Source: Verrucomicrobiota bacterium | GTDB lineage: Bacteria; Verrucomicrobiota; Verrucomicrobiia; Opitutales; Opitutaceae | NCBI GenBank assembly: GCA_016222805.1 | Contig: JACRQG010000011.1 | Location: forward strand, 501,191-565,190 | Direction: 5' to 3' | DNA length: 64,000 bases | Shown here: positions 5,808-12,557 of the stretch, in pieces | How the letters are laid out: the number at the start of each line of letters is the position of its first letter | Numbering within the stretch: position 1 is the first letter of the stretch | Program-made: the position numbers and the translations under genes | Notes under the pieces: model-generated | What the model was told of the DNA's origin: nothing | Seen by the model: only the letters and a program-made list of their open reading frames with translations | The model's database searches: none

Positions 5808-6797
5808 CTAGTTCGCGGCGGTGTGCGGTTCGCGGTAGTTGCGCAAGCGCCGGAGAATTCCGGAGGTCAGGGAGATTCCGCTGGCGGAGAGGCTGAGCGC
5901 AGCGGCTCCCAAGACCGGCCGGAGGCATGGTGGCTTCACCGAGATCGGCAGCCTGGCCTGCAGGGCTTTGATCAGGCTGGCGCGAACCCGGCGGTTGTGG
6001 GCGAGGACTCCTCCGAGGAGGAAAACCGGTACGGGCCGAGCGGTCAGACCGGATTGCCGCAGCGCCGCAAGGGCCTGACTGGCCAGTTCGGCTCCGGCGC
6101 GCGTCAGGATCTCGCTAAAGACGGGGTCTGCCCGGGGGAGATACTGCGGGAGCCGGGAAGCGGCGGCTGCGATTTCGTCCTTCGCGCCAGGGGCGTGGAA
6201 GCGCGCCACCGCGGCATCCAGGTTCTCGACGCCCAGGCTCCGGCAGATCGCCCTTTTCAGGAGCGTCTGGCGACCGCGGCCCTCGCGTGCGGCCAGCGCG
6301 GCCCGAAGCGCTTCACGCGCAATCCACCAGGCACTGCCTTCATCGCCCAGCACGTGACCCCAGCCTCCGGCCTGCCCAATCGCACCCTTGCTCCCTCGCG
6401 CAAGGACCATCGAGCCAGTGCCGGCGACAATCACGACACCCGGTTCTCCGAGCGTCGCGCCGAAATGGGCGGTTTGAAGATCGCTGATTACGCGGGCGGA
6501 GGCCAGGGGGAGCAGTCCGGTGCAAAGCGCTCGTTTCTCGGCTCGGGTGGCGTCCGCGAACAGGGCGGCGCAGCCGATGACCGGTCGCTGGAAAACCGTC
6601 CCGGGCGGGAGCTGCCGCCGAAGTCCGGCGAGCAACGACGCCAGCGAACGACGGGCCGTCGGGAGATCGGCCCCGAGGAAGTTCAAGGATCCCGATTGCG
6701 CTGCGGCGAGAATCGTGCCGTCGCGGGAAACGGCCACTCCAAACGAGTGCGTGCCTCCCCCGTCGATGCCCAGGTGAACCGCTGGAGACGCGCTCAT
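5808..6797 (-). CDS. BadF/BadG-type sugar kinase, probable N-acetylglucosamine kinase
   Basis: This 329-aa cytoplasmic protein belongs to the BadF/BadG/BcrA/BcrD ATPase family within the ASKHA fold, which includes GlcNAc kinases and glucosamine kinases. It shows phosphate-1 motif LGIDGGGTHS (residues 9-18), phosphate-2/adenosine segment VIVAGTGSMVL, the GlcNAc-kinase-like stretch GGWGHVLGDEGSAWWI, and a C-terminal LLGGVLAHN glycine motif. The likely reaction is ATP-dependent 6-phosphorylation of GlcNAc (or GlcN) released inside the cell. It is the last gene of the five-gene operon, and its ATG overlaps the TGA of the acetyltransferase gene (ATGA at 6797-6794). Longer in-frame starts exist but lie inside that gene. 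The exact substrate is inferred from the operon. Confidence 0.85.
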   Translation of the reverse strand: MSASPAVHLGIDGGGTHSFGVAVSRDGTILAAAQSGSLNFLGADLPTARRSLASLLAGLRRQLPPGTVFQRPVIGCAALFADATRAEKRALCTGLLPLASARVISDLQTAHFGATLGEPGVVIVAGTGSMVLARGSKGAIGQAGGWGHVLGDEGSAWWIAREALRAALAAREGRGRQTLLKRAICRSLGVENLDAAVARFHAPGAKDEIAAAASRLPQYLPRADPVFSEILTRAGAELASQALAALRQSGLTARPVPVFLLGGVLAHNRRVRASLIKALQARLPISVKPPCLRPVLGAAALSLSASGISLTSGILRRLRNYREPHTAAN

Positions 6798-7435
6798 GCG
6801 TTCAGAGGATCGACCAGGCGCCGCGCGAGATACAGCGTTCCTGGAGCGCGGGCCAGTTCGCGGAAGCCTAACTTGGTGTAGAAGGCGGCAGCCCGGAGGT
6901 TGTCGGACGCCATCGCCAGATGGATGCCGGGAGAACCACGCTCCCGCAGCGCGGAGAGCAGCACCTGCATCAGGGCCCGCCCGTTTCCCCGGCCCTGGGC
7001 GCGGGGCAGCAGATCGATGTGCAGGTGCGAGGGAAAATCGCCATAGGGATCCGGAAGGAAAATTTCCGGATGGTGGTAGAGCTGCCACAGCTGCTGATCG
7101 CGCGACCAGCCGGAGGGATCTCCCTGCGGAGCGGGGTGTCGGGCGCGCAGGGGGGGCAGCCACTCGTTTTCGTAGTGCGAATAAAAGGTCCGGGAATCCA
7201 GGGCGCCGAGAGCATAACCGCAAACTCCGGCCGAATCTTCGAGCAGGAACGCGAACTCCGGCTCGTAGCGGAGGTAGGCGCCGACATAGACGTTGCCGAG
7301 GGCGTCGCGATCATCGTGCAGGTGGGAAGCGTCTTGCCCGCTGTCTCCCGTTTGCAGGCAAACAGCATAGGCGGCGGCGCGGTCGCCGGGTCCGGCGCGG
7401 CGAATTCGGAAATCAGGTGCCGAAAACGTGGTCAT
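6794..7435 (-). CDS. GNAT acetyltransferase resembling the C-terminal domain of human O-GlcNAcase
   Basis: 213 aa from ATG 7435. It has a GNAT fold: FRIRRAGPGDRAAAYAVC at the N-terminus, FAFLLEDSAGVCGYALGALD in the middle, an acetyl-CoA P-loop QGRGNG (residues 147-152) fitting Q/R-x-x-G-x-G, and AAAFYTKLGFREL near the end. From memory, the segments LLEDSAGVCGYALG and YTKLGF closely resemble the C-terminal acetyltransferase-like domain of eukaryotic O-GlcNAcase. The P-loop, reported as degenerate in the human domain, looks intact here. Substrate unknown; candidates are an amino sugar or a protein. It lies between the GH84 gene and the kinase with ATGA overlaps on both sides, so it is surely co-translated with them. 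Confidence 0.85.
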   Translation of the reverse strand: MTTFSAPDFRIRRAGPGDRAAAYAVCLQTGDSGQDASHLHDDRDALGNVYVGAYLRYEPEFAFLLEDSAGVCGYALGALDSRTFYSHYENEWLPPLRARHPAPQGDPSGWSRDQQLWQLYHHPEIFLPDPYGDFPSHLHIDLLPRAQGRGNGRALMQVLLSALRERGSPGIHLAMASDNLRAAAFYTKLGFRELARAPGTLYLARRLVDPLNA

Positions 7436-8805
7436 GGCGAGGCGCCCGTCGGGTGGTGAAACCTCCCGCTCCGGTCCATTGGCAGCAGGCGTTGGAACTC
7501 GGCGGCGAGACCGCCGCAGAAGGTGCCGGCACGGTGCTCGGCCGAGGAGTAGCTCCCGCCCGGTTTGCCTGTGCGCAACCACTCGACGTACCCGAGGAGG
7601 AGCGCCGCCTCTTCCTTCAGCTCCCAAAGGTGGCGATAGAAGGTGTGCAGCAGTTCACGATCATGGAGCAGGGTCAATTTCTCGAACACGTCGATTACCT
7701 CCCGGCCCGTGGCGACAAACCGATCCAATCGGCCATCCCAGAGGGCTGGAGCCGTCTGGCATAACCAGGCGAAGTCTTCCAGCCAGGCGGAGGACCGGGG
7801 CCCTTGGAGATGCGGGAGATGAAAGCAGTCACCCACGAGTTCGAGGGCTGTCAGGGGAATCAGGCTGGAATCGCCCGGGAAAGATCCGGCGATTTGCCAG
7901 CGCGGTTGCCACTCTCGCCAGGCCGCCCGGGCGGCGATCGTGGCTTCGTAGTCGGGCGAAGTTGCCCAGGCGGCGAAGGTCCGCAGCGGCACGAAGTTCG
8001 CGGCGAACTCGCAGTTGGGATTGCAGAGGACACCGGCCACGGTGTCGCGCAGTGCGGCGGGCCGGCCGGAATAGGGACCGAGGTAGAGCCGGCGGAGGTC
8101 GTAGTCGTTGGCGAACAGGTTGTCCCAAATCAGCGGTTTACGCCGGAGAACGGCCGCAACCTCGGCGACATCTTCCGGATGGATCCGTTCGGAGATGATT
8201 TCGGGCCCTGTCCAAAGGACCTGAATGACGGGATCAAGGGCGGCTCCGAGTTGGCGGAGGTAGGTCGATTCCGTCGGAGGGCCCGCCATCCGGCCGCAGT
8301 AGGGTGTCGGACAGAAAAGAAGCTCGGCGGCAGGGTCGCGGTGTCGCTGCAGGCCGAGAAGGTGATGGGCGAAGGCGACCTGTGGACCGACGACCGCGGC
8401 GCCGGTGTCGAGCAGGCCGGAGGCCGGAGAAGCCACGATGTCATCAAACAGCGCCGCAAAGCACGTGCAGCCAAGCCGGAGCAGTTGCCCGGCCTTTTCC
8501 TCGAGGGCTGCGATTCCGGCCGGGGACGCGAAGTCCGGATCCAATCCCGGGGCAAGCGCGTACACGAATGTAATGCCGGCGGCGCGACAGGCGCGGATGA
8601 GAGCGCCAAGTTCCGAGGCCTCGTGCTCCGAATAGCAGGCACGCCAGAGGTGCCGGTGCTTGAGGTCGTCCTTGGGCGCATACAAGTAGGTGTTCAACCC
8701 CCACGCCCGCATCCAGGCGAAGAGTTCCGTGCGCTGGCTCGCAGTCCAGGGGCGACCGTAGAATCCCTCGACGACGCCGGAAAGGAACTGCCGGGAAGGT
8801 GTCAT
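7432..8805 (-). CDS. Cytoplasmic GH84 beta-N-acetylglucosaminidase (O-GlcNAcase-like)
   Basis: A 457-aa glycoside hydrolase family 84 enzyme, which cleaves beta-linked terminal GlcNAc by substrate-assisted catalysis through the 2-acetamido group. The TIM barrel fills about residues 8-300. It has GVVEGFYGRPW at the start, LNTYLYAPKDD, the catalytic acid pair in FAALFDDI (D121, D122), WTGPEII, IWDNLFANDYD (N229, D234) and NPNCEF (N263/N265). These match the active-site residues of human O-GlcNAcase (D174, D175, N280, D285, N313). A helical C-terminal domain follows. No signal peptide is present, so the enzyme should act in the cytoplasm on imported sugar or on protein O-GlcNAc. It overlaps its neighbours on both sides by ATGA. 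Confidence 0.93.
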   Translation of the reverse strand: MTPSRQFLSGVVEGFYGRPWTASQRTELFAWMRAWGLNTYLYAPKDDLKHRHLWRACYSEHEASELGALIRACRAAGITFVYALAPGLDPDFASPAGIAALEEKAGQLLRLGCTCFAALFDDIVASPASGLLDTGAAVVGPQVAFAHHLLGLQRHRDPAAELLFCPTPYCGRMAGPPTESTYLRQLGAALDPVIQVLWTGPEIISERIHPEDVAEVAAVLRRKPLIWDNLFANDYDLRRLYLGPYSGRPAALRDTVAGVLCNPNCEFAANFVPLRTFAAWATSPDYEATIAARAAWREWQPRWQIAGSFPGDSSLIPLTALELVGDCFHLPHLQGPRSSAWLEDFAWLCQTAPALWDGRLDRFVATGREVIDVFEKLTLLHDRELLHTFYRHLWELKEEAALLLGYVEWLRTGKPGGSYSSAEHRAGTFCGGLAAEFQRLLPMDRSGRFHHPTGASP

Positions 8806-10043
8806 GGCGCGGGGGCAGGCGCCTTCCTCAGGCGCTGGAACTCCAGCAGGCGGGCGAAGGGCAGATAGACCAGCATGGCAAGGCCGATGGAGATTGCCCC
8901 CCAGAGTGCCGCGCGCCAGTCACCTCCGGTCACCAGGTAGTGGCCGATGATCGGTGGGGTGGTCCAGGGGATGTTGAGGAAGGGCCGGCCGATCCAGCCA
9001 GCCTGCATCAAGAGGTACGTGCCCGTCGTGAGCAGCAGGGCGTTGAGCACGTACGGGATCATGAGGAGCGGGTTCAGGACGATCGGAATACCAAAGAAGA
9101 TCGGTTCGTTGATTTGGAAGACCTGCGTGGGCAGGGAGAGACGGCACACCTGCCGCAGAGCGGGGTCGGGCGAGCGGAGCAGGAGCAGCGCGAGGGCCAG
9201 GGTGGCACCGGTGCCACCGACATTGACAAAGGTACTGAAGAAACCGTTGGCGGTGACGTAGGGTGCCGGCAGTCCCTGCGTGATGGCGGCGACGTTGTCG
9301 GCCAAGTACTGCAGGAAGATCGGAGCGACGATGGCGTCCATCGCATTGTCGCCATTGATTCCGACCGACCAGAGCAGGGTGACAAGAAAGGCGTAGACCA
9401 GGATGCCCGGAAGGGTGTTGAGGGCGAAGACGAGCGGCGAAAACGCGGCTTGGATGAGTTGATTGAGGTCGAGGCCAAGGACGAAACGCAGGGCCCAGAA
9501 CATCGCGACCAGGCACGCCATGGGCGCGAGGGAAAGGAATGACTCCGCCACGATCTTCGGAACTCCGGGCGGCAGACGGATGACGAGGTTGCGGTCGGTG
9601 AAGGCCTTTTTCACGCGGACCGAGACCAGTGCAATCACGATGGCGGTGAACAGGCCGGCGGAGCCAAGGCCGGAGAAGGTGAGGGCCTCTCCCTTGGCAT
9701 CCAGTTGCAGCAACAGGAAATTCAGGGTCGCCAGCATGGCACTGCCGGCGGGGTCCTGTCCCAGGCGCTGCCCGAGTTCGTATCCGATTGCGAAACACAC
9801 GAAGACGGCCAGGAGCCCGAAAGTGGCGGCGACGGGCACCTGGAGGATCGGGAAGTGGGTGGTGAGATGCCCTTCCCACCCGGGGATTGGCAGATGGGCG
9901 GCGAGTAGGAATACCCCTCCGATAATCGTCAGCGGGACGATCGCCACCATGCCGGCGCGGATGGCGGCAAGGTAGGTGTTGTCCGCGAGGGCGGTCAATG
10001 GCGGCAGGAGGCGCCGCTGGAAGGCTTCGGCGGCGCGGCTCAC
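8802..10043 (-). CDS. Orphan PTS EIIC-type sugar permease (Lac/cellobiose-chitobiose family)
   Basis: A 413-aa membrane protein with about ten hydrophobic helices, alignable to ChbC/CelB-type EIIC subunits. The conserved NEPIFFGIPIVLNP motif (Glu313) of the sugar-binding hairpin is intact. The family motif W-x-x-GIHG reads WSVGING here (residues 225-231), so the conserved active-site histidine is Asn230. No EIIA, EIIB, HPr or EI gene lies in the window. Together with the kinase two genes downstream of GH84, this suggests transport without phosphorylation, probably of a GlcNAc-containing disaccharide or conjugate. The substrate is inferred from the operon. The start overlaps the stop of the upstream secreted protein, and its stop overlaps the GH84 start (both ATGA). 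Confidence 0.88.
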   Translation of the reverse strand: MSRAAEAFQRRLLPPLTALADNTYLAAIRAGMVAIVPLTIIGGVFLLAAHLPIPGWEGHLTTHFPILQVPVAATFGLLAVFVCFAIGYELGQRLGQDPAGSAMLATLNFLLLQLDAKGEALTFSGLGSAGLFTAIVIALVSVRVKKAFTDRNLVIRLPPGVPKIVAESFLSLAPMACLVAMFWALRFVLGLDLNQLIQAAFSPLVFALNTLPGILVYAFLVTLLWSVGINGDNAMDAIVAPIFLQYLADNVAAITQGLPAPYVTANGFFSTFVNVGGTGATLALALLLLRSPDPALRQVCRLSLPTQVFQINEPIFFGIPIVLNPLLMIPYVLNALLLTTGTYLLMQAGWIGRPFLNIPWTTPPIIGHYLVTGGDWRAALWGAISIGLAMLVYLPFARLLEFQRLRKAPAPAP

Positions 10044-12166
10044 GGCTTGGCAATGTACCCGTGGTATAGACCCATGTAGTAGGGGAGGAGGAAAACCGTG
10101 CCGGCCCCCAGGAGGTTGCCCTTGCCCTCGTAATCGAGCTGCCAGGGGTCGGTGTTCCAGTGGTTGAAGTGGCGGTTTTCCACCGGCAGCACCCGCCCAT
10201 TGCCGCGATGACCGCGCCCTTCGTTGCCGGGTTCATAGAAGTCGCGTGCCTGGCTCGCGGGCAGCCGGCGAATGTCCAGGCGATGTGAGTTGCGCGAAGG
10301 CCAGTTGAGCCGATCGAGGGGGAAGCCGTGAAGCGTGGCCATGGACTCGGCGTGCCATCCCGGGGCCGGGGACAAGGGAAACTCGCCCCAGAGATTGCGC
10401 AGGGTGCGTCCCTGGCATTGGGACGCGTAGGCGAAGTTGAAGAAGGGGTTGAGTTCGGCCGCCTCGTTTTGCCAGTAGGCGTAAAACGAAGTGCGGACGA
10501 GGTTCTTCAGGTCTTCGTTGGTCGAATAGCGGAGCAGACTGTAGAAGCACATGAAGGCCATCTCGTCGTCCGACTGATTGCCGGACCCCGGCCCGGATTG
10601 AACTTTGGGATACAGGAGGTTCTGCGCATAGCCATGGCGGTCGATCAGCTCGGCCGCGACGGCGTCGTACTTTGCATCCTGGGTGATGTGCCGGGCCACG
10701 GCCAGGTAGGACAGGAGGCTGAGGGAATTGAGGCCGCGCTCCGCCCACCAGTTGGGATCACGGTTGAGTACCTCCGGGCGGTACATGCCCCAGCGCGTCG
10801 GTCGCCCGTCGTGATCCGTCAGGGTGAAGCCGTGGGCGATCAGGTGGTCGGTCAGCGCCCGCACAACCTCCCGCACGCGCTCGCGCTCCGCTGAGGTTTC
10901 CGCCACGAGGTCGTAGTAAAGCGGGTAAAAGAAGTAGTGTCCGTCGAGTTCGTCGCTGCTCGTATCCGATTTCCAGTACCATTTTCCATCCGCGCTGAGG
11001 GGCCAGCGAGGTTCGTAGGCCTTCCAGAGCGCATCCTCCTGCTGTTTGGCGCGGTCCTGGGCGAGGCGTCCTTGGTTGGGATCCGGCCATTCCACGGGAC
11101 GGATGGTGCGGGCAACATAACCCGCCGGAGGCGCGAATCGACCGCCTTGAGTCACATCCTGCAGGAACTTCAGCGCGGCGAACACCTGATCGGCACGAGC
11201 CTTGGCGGCTGGGTCGCGGGTGGCTCCGAAGGCAAAACACTCGCCAGCTCCGTACATCGCAGTCCAGAGCCCGTCGTTGTCGGAGTCGTGGGGAGCCGCG
11301 GTTGTGCGATCCCCCGCCTGGCGCAGGGGGGCTTCCGCGACGTAGCCGTACGGCGTGCGTTTAATGAAGCGCGCGATCTCGTCTTCGTAGAATCGGGCCT
11401 TGGCCGCCAGCGTCATTGGGCGGCGTTCAATGCAGCCGACTCCACCTTCGGTGGCGAACCATGCTGCCCCGTCTGGTGCGACCGCAATCGCGTGCACCTG
11501 GTCATGGGGCAGCCAGCGCGGACCCTGGCGGTAGTGAAACTCCCGACCGTCCCAGCGAATCGCGCCGCGTTTTGTCCCGAACCAGACCTCACCGTCGGCT
11601 CCCGCGGCGGCGCAGGTGAACTCGTTCCACGGAACGCCATCTTGCGGACCGAAGAAACGCCAGCCGCCGGGAGTGCGGCAGCCAACCCCCGCGAGGCTGG
11701 CGAACCAGAGTTGATCCCGCGCATCGAAGGTCGCTCCCAGAACTTCGTCCGTCGCCCAACGGCGCCCCAGGTTGTCCGGCACCTCCATTGTTTCCCAGCC
11801 GCGCCCCGTGCGCCGGAGCAGGCCATGATTCGTGGCCGCGATCAGTTCGCCGGAGCGGGAGCGCGCGATTTGGTGCAGCGTTACGTCGGGAGGAAGTTCG
11901 GGCGTCGGCGGAGACTCCGGGGGTAGTGCCGGTTGCCACCGGCCGCTTTGGAAGGTGTGCCACGTTCCACCAGCGTGAGCGTGCACCGCGCCGTCGGCGG
12001 AAACCTCGATCCGCGTGACGGACCCGCGGAGGGCGCTGACCGATGGGAGCAGGTGGGAAGCCGACTCCTGCCGGAACTCCTGCGGAGCGACTGGTGCTTG
12101 CGCGTCAGTGGCGGAAAGCAGCGCTGGCGAGAAGGCGCAGACGAAGAGACTGGATCGAAACCACAT
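10040..12166 (-). CDS. Secreted protein: two-component-type propeller repeats plus alpha/alpha-barrel-like domain, function unknown
   Basis: About 708 aa from ATG 12166, chosen because it begins with a signal peptide (MWFRSSLFVCAFSPALLSA). ATGs at 12196 and 12226 are also in frame. Residues ~60-260 contain beta-propeller repeats of the type found in sensor parts of hybrid two-component proteins (LWFASLAGVG, VWFGTKRGAI, AWFATEGGVG). There is no membrane anchor or kinase. Residues ~270-700 are helical and Trp/Tyr-rich (DGLWTAMYGAGECFAFGAT, DPNWWAERGLNSLSLLSYLA), reminiscent of six-hairpin glycosidase or lyase-like domains. I cannot name a catalytic residue. As first gene of the amino-sugar operon it may bind or degrade the outer glycan. 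Confidence 0.75.
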   Translation of the reverse strand: MWFRSSLFVCAFSPALLSATDAQAPVAPQEFRQESASHLLPSVSALRGSVTRIEVSADGAVHAHAGGTWHTFQSGRWQPALPPESPPTPELPPDVTLHQIARSRSGELIAATNHGLLRRTGRGWETMEVPDNLGRRWATDEVLGATFDARDQLWFASLAGVGCRTPGGWRFFGPQDGVPWNEFTCAAAGADGEVWFGTKRGAIRWDGREFHYRQGPRWLPHDQVHAIAVAPDGAAWFATEGGVGCIERRPMTLAAKARFYEDEIARFIKRTPYGYVAEAPLRQAGDRTTAAPHDSDNDGLWTAMYGAGECFAFGATRDPAAKARADQVFAALKFLQDVTQGGRFAPPAGYVARTIRPVEWPDPNQGRLAQDRAKQQEDALWKAYEPRWPLSADGKWYWKSDTSSDELDGHYFFYPLYYDLVAETSAERERVREVVRALTDHLIAHGFTLTDHDGRPTRWGMYRPEVLNRDPNWWAERGLNSLSLLSYLAVARHITQDAKYDAVAAELIDRHGYAQNLLYPKVQSGPGSGNQSDDEMAFMCFYSLLRYSTNEDLKNLVRTSFYAYWQNEAAELNPFFNFAYASQCQGRTLRNLWGEFPLSPAPGWHAESMATLHGFPLDRLNWPSRNSHRLDIRRLPASQARDFYEPGNEGRGHRGNGRVLPVENRHFNHWNTDPWQLDYEGKGNLLGAGTVFLLPYYMGLYHGYIAKP

Positions 12167-12226
12167 TGGGGAGGGGGCAACGTTGAGGACGGGCATGCCG
12201 CGCGTGGCAGGCAAGAAATTTGGCAC

Positions 12227-12480: not shown

Positions 12481-12557
<77 letters not shown>

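What the first reader, a model, noticed from the sequence alone, without database searches (positions are those of the whole stretch)
6794..8805. The two halves of human-type O-GlcNAcase occur as adjacent overlapping genes
The GH84 gene (7432-8805) carries, in order, GVVEGFYGRPW, TYLYAPKDD, FAALFDDI, IWDNLFANDYD and NPNCEF. These read almost like the catalytic half of human O-GlcNAcase and keep all its active-site residues. The next gene, sharing the ATGA overlap, is a GNAT whose VCGYALG and FYTKLGF stretches resemble the human enzyme's C-terminal acetyltransferase-like domain. In animals these are one polypeptide. Here they are two translationally coupled genes, a bacterial Rosetta-stone pair that bears on how the eukaryotic fusion arose. 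No signal peptide is present, so the hydrolase should be cytoplasmic like the human enzyme.
Basis: partly seen in the sequence, partly recalled or inferred. Interest (0 to 1): 0.88.

Follow-up and report, generated by a model that had tools for sequence, protein, structure and literature searches.

The report
Bacterial gene pair matching human O-GlcNAcase
A bacterium carries the two halves of the human sugar-removing enzyme O-GlcNAcase as overlapping genes in what looks like a sugar import and breakdown operon, and some planctomycete relatives carry them already fused with the acetyltransferase half apparently intact, which hints at what the inactive half of the human enzyme may once have done.

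Summary
GH84 (7432-8805, minus) and a GNAT (6794-7435, minus) overlap by ATGA. Both are specifically related to the halves of human O-GlcNAcase (OGA): TIM barrel 47.7% identical, stalk matched, GNAT 30.5% identical. Eight active-site residues checked are kept. The arrangement itself is published (Rao et al. 2013, Oceanicola). New here: (1) the pair sits in a five-gene chain with 4-base overlaps: predicted exported propeller protein, orphan PTS-type EIIC permease, GH84, GNAT, BadF-family kinase; Oceanicola shows ABC importer, GH84, GNAT, BadF kinase. (2) All 7 OGA-type GH84s met in four phylum samples have the GNAT next door or fused (3 of them were search centres). (3) One planctomycete family has true fusions (8 of 72 genomes), acetyl-CoA site largely intact. 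(4) Animal OGAs fall in the same GH84 clade, but a common clade with the fused bacterial forms is rejected (p=0.0014), so fusion probably happened twice. Best reading, unproven: the GNAT N-acetylates glucosaminides so that GH84, which needs the 2-acetamido group, can cut them; the human pseudo-acetyltransferase would be its relic. Against: the kinase is in only 4 of 38 paired loci, most unpaired GNATs show no amino-sugar neighbours, and no substrate was tested.

The parts
7432..8805 (-). GH84 beta-N-acetylglucosaminidase of OGA type: TIM barrel plus stalk, 457 aa, no signal peptide
   Evidence: active-site residues G14 K45 D121 D122 Y169 N229 D234 N262 equal to human
6794..7435 (-). OgpAT-type GNAT acetyltransferase, 213 aa; P-loop Q147-G-R-G-N-G152, candidate base H139
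7432..7435 (-). ATGA overlap of GH84 stop and GNAT start
   Evidence: a 4-base start/stop overlap is present in 24 of 39 other distinct unfused pairs
5808..6797 (-). BadF/BadG/BcrA ATPase-family protein, probably a sugar kinase; ATGA overlap with GNAT stop
   Evidence: Pfam PF01869 2.3e-23; NCBIfam NagK_SO3507 2.7e-21 but under its cut-off; translation
8802..10043 (-). Orphan PTS EIIC permease, lactose/cellobiose (LacE) subfamily, overlaps GH84 start
   Evidence: NCBIfam lacE subfamily 297.8 bits, cut-off 236; no PF02302 (PTS_IIB) and no PF02255 (PTS_IIA) match in the genome; overlap
10040..12226 (-). Predicted exported protein (hydrophobic N-terminus, judged by eye): beta-propeller plus alpha-helical domain, function unknown; start codon uncertain
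   Evidence: Reg_prop; model pLDDT 73.7, propeller matches; C-terminal part only weakly like (alpha/alpha)6 sugar enzymes, no match at E <= 0.001; overlap

Best explanation
An amino-sugar salvage operon built round the bacterial homologue of O-GlcNAcase. Shown: homology, gene order, intact catalytic residues. Inferred: an oligosaccharide or glycoside with a terminal beta-linked GlcNAc or GlcN enters through the EIIC permease unphosphorylated (no EIIB or EIIA of this type was found in the genome) or, in other lineages, through an ABC importer. Inside, the GNAT uses acetyl-CoA to N-acetylate terminal glucosamine; the GH84, which uses the substrate's own 2-acetamido group and should not cut a free-amine glucosaminide, then releases GlcNAc; in the window and a few other lineages a BadF-family kinase phosphorylates it. 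Overlapping genes keep the two enzymes in step; a planctomycete family fused them. Animals inherited homologues of both, probably fused them separately, and lost the acetyl-CoA site, leaving the pseudo-acetyltransferase of human OGA.
For: Homology of both halves. H137, H139, D141 and N179 invariant in 46 of 46 aligned bacterial pair GNATs (7 fused included); P-loop Q147 in 42, G150 in 45, G152 in 46; in human and Trichoplax the P-loop, H139 and N179 are gone. GH84 active-site residues equal in 46 of 46 bacterial rows, save one X at one site. OGA-type GH84s (250 bits or more to the window GH84) met in four phylum samples: 7, all with the GNAT beside or fused; 3 of the 7 are the search centres (window, Oceanicola, G336), the other 4 (G1125, which is the genome of L107, and G684, G518, G489) were not picked beforehand for these searches, though the query held GH84 and GNAT together. 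Importers: EIIC in 30 of 44 loci of the verrucomicrobial, planctomycete, acidobacterial and unnamed set; ABC permeases before the pair in L057, L107, L111, L113, L127. BadF kinase after the pair in the window, L088, L107, L113 (Oceanicola) and L127. A GNAT joined to a SIS phosphosugar domain behind GH84 in L148. GNATs without GH84: beside nagB, BadF and ROK genes in Falsirhodobacter, ABC sugar importer, ROK and BadF in Duffyella, a PIG-L deacetylase with nagA nearby in Deinococcus. 7 of 32 unpaired loci elsewhere have an amino-sugar gene within about 6 kb against 0 of 20 control stretches (one-sided Fisher p 0.025). Functional parallel: fungal RmNag, a GH3 N-acetylglucosaminidase whose GNAT region has shown glucosamine N-acetyltransferase activity (PMC4680927).
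Against: No substrate tested by me or, as far as I found, by anyone for this GNAT subfamily. The kinase is not a constant partner: within the paired loci a BadF hit is in 4 of 38, and none was detected in the short stretches of the window's nearest relatives L003-L006 or in L054. Of 38 paired loci only 7 show any further amino-sugar gene looked for. 25 of 32 unpaired loci outside the main group and 10 of 10 inside it show none. Of 7 plasmid loci opened (of 30 hits), L137, L138 and L140 show nothing of the kind and L136 only a ROK regulator and a Gfo/Idh dehydrogenase. A DegT aminotransferase stands between GNAT and EIIC in some loci (Pfam for L074; by eye in L066, L073, L079, L080; in L087 behind the GNAT), so another amino sugar is possible. 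The kinase is below NCBIfam's cut-off for NagK. nagA, nagB and OGT were not looked for in the window's genome. SsAT's authors could not exclude peptides as acceptors. In fungi a GH3-GNAT protein, Ngs1, is a GlcNAc-activated regulator, not a salvage enzyme (PMC5063960, passages).
Confidence: 0.5

Rival explanations
1. A regulatory pair: GH84 removes GlcNAc from cytoplasmic proteins, or senses GlcNAc, and the GNAT acetylates proteins or peptides.
For: Window GH84 barrel is closer in identity to human OGA (47.7%) than OgOGA is (40.7%); stalk present; Thermobaculum has an OGT/OGA couple (PMC4683255, passages); fungal Ngs1 couples a GlcNAc-binding GH3 domain to a histone-acetylating GNAT (PMC5063960, passages).
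Against: Permease in the same overlapping chain and importers in other lineages point to catabolism; Rao 2013 states that reversible intracellular O-GlcNAc was not detected in bacteria. No OGT search was made here.
Confidence: 0.13
2. The GNAT acetylates a different amino sugar (for example one made by the DegT aminotransferase or handled with Gfo/Idh dehydrogenases), and GH84 acts on a glycoside of that compound.
For: DegT gene between GNAT and EIIC in several loci; Gfo/Idh neighbours in L135, L136.
Against: No DegT among the five genes of the window's chain; GH84 residues that hold GlcNAc are unchanged. DegT was not searched systematically.
Confidence: 0.2
3. The GNAT has an unrelated housekeeping or detoxifying role and the pairing is a matter of co-inheritance.
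For: 25 of 32 unpaired loci outside the main group and 10 of 10 within it lack the amino-sugar genes looked for.
Against: 7 of 7 OGA-type GH84s are paired across three phyla (3 of them search centres), 24 of 39 distinct unfused pairs have a 4-base overlap, and fusion occurred.
Confidence: 0.12
4. Animals received the already fused bacterial gene.
For: Fused genes with the same order TIM-stalk-GNAT and short linkers exist in bacteria.
Against: AU test rejects animals plus fused forms as one clade, p 0.00137; the joint tree puts the seven fused rows used there in a 100/100 clade without animals. Only two animal sequences were available.
Confidence: 0.05

Closest known systems
OgOGA-OgpAT neighbouring genes of Oceanicola granulosus (Rao et al. 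2013, PMC3814719)
   Same: GH84 with stalk followed by GNAT with intact P-loop and His-Ile-Asp; a BadF-family kinase gene downstream, as in the window (found here)
   Different: Oceanicola has an ABC importer; the window has an orphan EIIC and a propeller protein, and the ATGA overlap that Oceanicola's GH84 stop lacks
Human and Trichoplax O-GlcNAcase
   Same: Domain order TIM barrel, stalk, GNAT fold; eight hydrolase residues checked
   Different: One polypeptide; acetyl-CoA P-loop and candidate base lost; nucleocytoplasmic protein regulation
SsAT of Streptomyces sviceus (4bmh, PMC3919268)
   Same: Same GNAT subfamily, 42% identical to the window GNAT
   Different: Actinobacterial; the actinobacterial loci fetched here carry no OGA-type GH84 beside the GNAT
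RmNag of Rhizomucor miehei (GH3 N-acetylglucosaminidase with glucosamine N-acetyltransferase region, PMC4680927)
   Same: N-acetylglucosaminidase coupled to a GNAT; the parallel proposed here is functional
   Different: GH3, tandem GNAT domains; not compared by sequence here
Ngs1 of Candida albicans (PMC5063960)
   Same: N-acetylglucosaminidase-like domain joined to a GNAT
   Different: GH3-like sensor; GlcNAc binding switches on histone acetylation (abstract and passages)

Membership tests
GH84, OGA type | NAGidase domain over the curated cut-off | tested here: met
   243.7 bits and 242.5 bits against 25
GH84, OGA type | Catalytic Asp-Asp and sugar-binding residues | tested here: met
   8 of 8 sites equal to human; Asp174/175 read, the other site numbers are recalled
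GH84, OGA type | Helical stalk homologous to human OGA | tested here: met
   residues 316-447 match the isolated human stalk at 2e-14
GH84, OGA type | Clade with animal OGA rather than with secreted NagJ/BtGH84-like GH84s | tested here: met
   52-row clade 100/99 against 9 other GH84 rows; NagJ and BtGH84 themselves were not in the tree but score far lower; order inside the clade not settled
GH84, OGA type | Hydrolysis of beta-GlcNAc | not testable with these tools
   needs assay
OgpAT/OGA-HAT GNAT subfamily | Best match to OgpAT, SsAT and OGA C-terminal domains, not to other GNATs | tested here: met
   9.5e-51, 1.1e-42, 3.1e-25 against 3.9e-6 for the next
OgpAT/OGA-HAT GNAT subfamily | P-loop [QR]xxGx[GA] and active-site His | tested here: met
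   QGRGNG, H139
Glucosamine/glucosaminide N-acetyltransferase (function) | Acetyl transfer to GlcN or a glucosaminide | not testable with these tools
   needs assay; no measured acceptor of this subfamily was found in the papers read
GlcNAc kinase NagK (BadF type) | NCBIfam equivalog cut-off | tested here: not met
   76.3 bits, cut-off 370; called only a BadF-family protein, probably a kinase
Phosphorylating PTS for this sugar | Cognate EIIB (PF02302) and EIIA (PF02255) | tested here: not met
   0 matches each in the 95.6% complete genome, while 6 and 3 of 14 control genomes rang; an Enzyme I N-terminal domain protein is present; other EIIB/EIIA families not tested

The most novel reading that the evidence does not exclude
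The pseudo-acetyltransferase of human O-GlcNAcase is the remains of a glucosaminide N-acetyltransferase that once prepared substrates for the hydrolase in a bacterial amino-sugar operon; the two genes were fused at least twice, once in planctomycetes with the acetyltransferase still alive and once on the way to animals with it dead.
Probability: 0.42. Interest if true: 0.82.

Novelty: new variant of a known kind. Interest (0 to 1): 0.6.

Why it matters
A 2025 structural paper (PMC12494797, sections 7 and 12 read) still classes the acetyltransferase-like domain of OGA as of unknown function, names fusion to it for metazoans and other partner domains for bacteria, and reports pHAT pockets facing the hydrolase active sites. 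Bacterial operons, and fused bacterial enzymes with a largely intact acetyl-CoA site, give a concrete and cheaply testable guess for the original acceptor and for why the two domains belong together, and supply natural full-length models. The window pair alone is a new member of a published kind; the chain around it and the fused relatives make the variant.

Tried and rejected
Fused forms in the window's genus: none seen; the long frames in L003-L011 are run-on frames, GH84 and GNAT being in separate frames. L091 and L147: GH84 and GNAT lie in one phase but a stop codon divides them, so not counted as fused. L093/L144: long frame without a recognised GH84 part.

Animals with the window's immediate group alone: rejected, p 0.0148; animals as sister of all bacterial OGA-type GH84s: not rejected, p 0.243, so I claim no donor lineage. 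The GNAT tree leaves the animal domains on long branches in an open fork. A test of animals plus Rhodobacterales was queued, did not finish and was not repeated.

The propeller protein: two models; propeller half clear; helical half only weakly like sugar epimerases, GH76 and GH9 exo-glucosaminidases, none at E <= 0.001. I draw no substrate from it.

Literature: in the listed results of searches (open-licence papers; lists capped, for example 15 of 1,244) I saw no report of a bacterial GH84-GNAT fusion or of this operon. GlmA of Clostridium acetobutylicum, a glucosaminide N-acetyltransferase encoded near a kinase and a glucosaminidase, is recalled; searches did not give its paper, and no sequence comparison was made.

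So, which print 47 of 89 and 30 of 45, give 41 of 83 and 24 of 39 distinct loci. The kinase's rarity (4 of 38) was added and odds lowered slightly (best reading from 0.55 to 0.5, novel case from 0.45 to 0.42).

Rows dropped: near-identical and contig-cut rows before the trees (scripts). Of 53 verrucomicrobial-phylum genomes with a GH84, 30 loci besides the window were fetched and scored, all under 150 bits; 22 genomes were not scored. The 80 loci are the best by likeness to the window GNAT from a list that had reached its limit, so pairing there (38 of 80) is no prevalence; 4 unpaired ones have under 1500 bases upstream.
Full report
WHAT IS THERE. On the minus strand of 5808-12226 five genes follow each other, each start overlapping the previous stop by four bases: a predicted exported propeller protein (10040-12226), an EIIC permease (8802-10043), GH84 (7432-8805), GNAT (6794-7435) and a BadF-family protein, probably a kinase (5808-6797). 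A tRNA-Pro gene lies upstream at 12481-12557, plus strand. Same-genus loci coincide with contigs titled Opitutaceae or Verrucomicrobia (L007=L060, L008=L063, L003=L054), so the window is verrucomicrobial.

HOMOLOGY. PDB sequence searches put the GNAT with OgpAT (9.5e-51), SsAT (1.1e-42) and animal OGA C-termini (3.1e-25, 1.3e-22); the next GNAT is at 3.9e-6. The GH84 matches human OGA (2.9e-103 best construct) and OgOGA (7.5e-91) far above NagJ and BtGH84, stalk included. Identity: barrel 47.7% to human over 279 sites, 46.2% to Trichoplax; OgOGA to human 40.7%. GNAT 30.5% to human, 30.9% to Trichoplax, 46.6% to OgpAT. Eight hydrolase residues are the same in the window, human, Trichoplax and 46 bacterial rows, save one X.

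ALREADY KNOWN. Rao et al. 2013 (PMC3814719; parts 1-3 of 5 of the full text) report OgpAT immediately downstream of OgOGA, the likeness of this order to human OGA, acetyl-CoA binding by OgpAT and none by the human domain, with the acceptor unidentified. He et al. (PMC3919268; sections 4, 15 part 1, 19, 20) describe SsAT with unexplained density in its acceptor pocket. So the pairing itself is published.

HOW GENERAL. In 57 related genomes, 10 counting the window's have a close GNAT (E 6.3e-67 or better), and all 10 have the GH84 before it. Of 80 loci chosen by GNAT likeness, 38 have an OGA-type GH84 (250 bits or more against the window GH84) on the same strand: 34 of 44 in the verrucomicrobial, planctomycete, acidobacterial and unnamed set, 4 of 36 elsewhere. 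With the three relatives that are not duplicates that makes 41 of 83 distinct loci, and 24 of the 39 unfused pairs share a 4-base start/stop overlap. Phylum samples with a GH84 or GH84-containing query show OGA-type GH84s to be rare: 2 of 398 Pseudomonadota-phylum genomes, Oceanicola (the search centre) and G1125 (the genome of L107), with 7 more carrying a lower-scoring GH84 and no GNAT in the stretch held; 0 of 396 Actinomycetota-phylum genomes, 16 with lower-scoring GH84; 4 of 392 in the planctomycete sample, G336 (centre), G684, G518, G489, with 3 lower-scoring; and of 288 in the window's phylum the window itself, 30 other loci scored, none OGA-type, 22 genomes not scored. All 7 are beside or fused to the GNAT; without the three centres, 4 of 4.

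FUSED BACTERIAL FORMS. L095 and L103, from two planctomycete MAGs, hold GH84 and GNAT in one frame (Pfam). In their family 12 of 72 genomes match the fused protein; 8 have barrel, stalk and GNAT in one uninterrupted frame, with 4-14 residues between the aligned parts, followed by an EIIC frame (in L159 only its start is held); 2 are cut by contig ends; 2 show the GNAT alone. The human linker is 15 residues (PMC12494797). Seven genomes at 54-72% identity to the eighth make an assembly artefact unlikely. Of the seven fused rows aligned all keep H137, H139 and D141; L156 has Ser for G150, L161 has Cys-Leu at 148-149. Over all bacterial domains held, duplicates included, 116 of 117 contain [QR]xxGx[GA] and 116 of 117 HxH[IVL][DN] somewhere.

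TREES. GH84 (61 rows): animals inside the 52-row OGA-type clade (100/99), within the 48 rows that leave out Oceanicola, L107 and Trueperaceae (98/89), in an open group with the window's lineage (88/90). Tests: animals plus fused forms rejected, p 0.00137; animals outside all bacterial OGA types not rejected, p 0.243; animals plus the window's immediate group rejected, p 0.0148. GNAT (99 rows): animal domains on very long branches in an open fork of a 78-row clade (96/83). Joint tree (55 rows): animals with L057 and L083 (82/81) inside a 43-row clade (96/97); fused forms in a separate 34-row clade (100/100). Animal and planctomycete fusions thus look independent; the donor is open, with only two animal sequences in hand and bacteria sampled largely by the GNAT.

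FUNCTION. The genome has a LacE-type EIIC but no PF02302 or PF02255 match; 6 and 3 of 14 control genomes rang. An Enzyme I-type protein is present. An EIIC without EIIB should pass sugar unphosphorylated, which fits an intracellular GH84 (inference). EIIC accompanies the GNAT in 30 of 44 loci of the main set. In Oceanicola (L113), L107 and Trueperaceae (L111, L127) the pair follows ABC sugar-permease genes, and in L107, L113 and L127 precedes a BadF-family gene. A GNAT joined to a SIS domain follows GH84 in L148. GNATs without GH84 lie beside nagB, BadF and ROK genes in Falsirhodobacter, importer, ROK and BadF in Duffyella, a PIG-L deacetylase with nagA nearby in Deinococcus. Against this: a BadF hit is in only 4 of 38 paired loci and any further amino-sugar gene in 7 of 38; in unpaired loci such genes appear in 7 of 32 outside the main set (controls 0 of 20, one-sided Fisher p 0.025) and 0 of 10 within it; the window's nearest relatives show no kinase directly behind the GNAT. 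OGA works by anchimeric help from the 2-acetamido group (abstract of PMC10636738 as listed), so a terminal glucosamine should block it and a GNAT that acetylates it would unblock it. RmNag shows that an N-acetylglucosaminidase can be joined to a glucosamine N-acetyltransferase (PMC4680927, part 1 and passages); Ngs1 shows that such a joint can also be regulatory (PMC5063960, passages).

INVARIANT SIDE CHAINS. T29, G33, D35, D42, H137, H139, D141, H172 and N179 are invariant in 46 of 46 bacterial rows and mostly replaced in the two animals (human keeps G33 and D141, Trichoplax H137). By the ungapped alignment window H139 is OgpAT His135, the base proposed by Rao et al., and D35 and D42 are OgpAT residues 31 and 38, inside the 27-41 loop insert that narrows the acceptor tunnel. 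I read them as candidate sugar-hydroxyl binders (inference).

VERDICT. Observation right; homology reading right; the neighbour pair already published; context, fused bacterial forms and independent fusion not seen in the papers searched; the substrate proposal is a plausible, untested guess.

Noticed in passing
L095:2961-5489, L103:2-1984, L141, L142, L156-L161: Planctomycete family with GH84-stalk-GNAT fused in one gene, acetyl-CoA site largely intact, EIIC next (L095=L142, L103=L141).
   Followed up: yes
L148 (1440-4130): GNAT of the OGA type joined to a SIS_2 phosphosugar domain directly behind an OGA-type GH84 gene.
   Followed up: partly
L066, L073, L074, L079, L080, L087 behind the GNAT: A DegT/DnrJ/EryC1 aminotransferase gene (Pfam only for L074, the rest by eye) follows the GNAT, mostly before EIIC; suggests another amino sugar.
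   Followed up: partly
L091:5926-5928 and L147: GH84 and GNAT close together in one phase but separated by a stop codon: near-fusions.
   Followed up: partly
L012:841-1743: In a same-genus genome a GNAT fragment (45% identity, residues 76-160) with an internal TGA in the match: possible decayed copy.
   Followed up: no
window 12481-12557: tRNA-Pro (cgg) on the plus strand upstream of the operon.
   Followed up: no
window 10040-12226: Propeller plus helical-domain protein family without a Pfam match in its C-terminal half, found near several of these pairs.
   Followed up: partly
L139:8635-9687: Deinococcus radiodurans OGA-type GNAT (28.5% identity) lies next to a PIG-L deacetylase and near nagA.
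   Followed up: no
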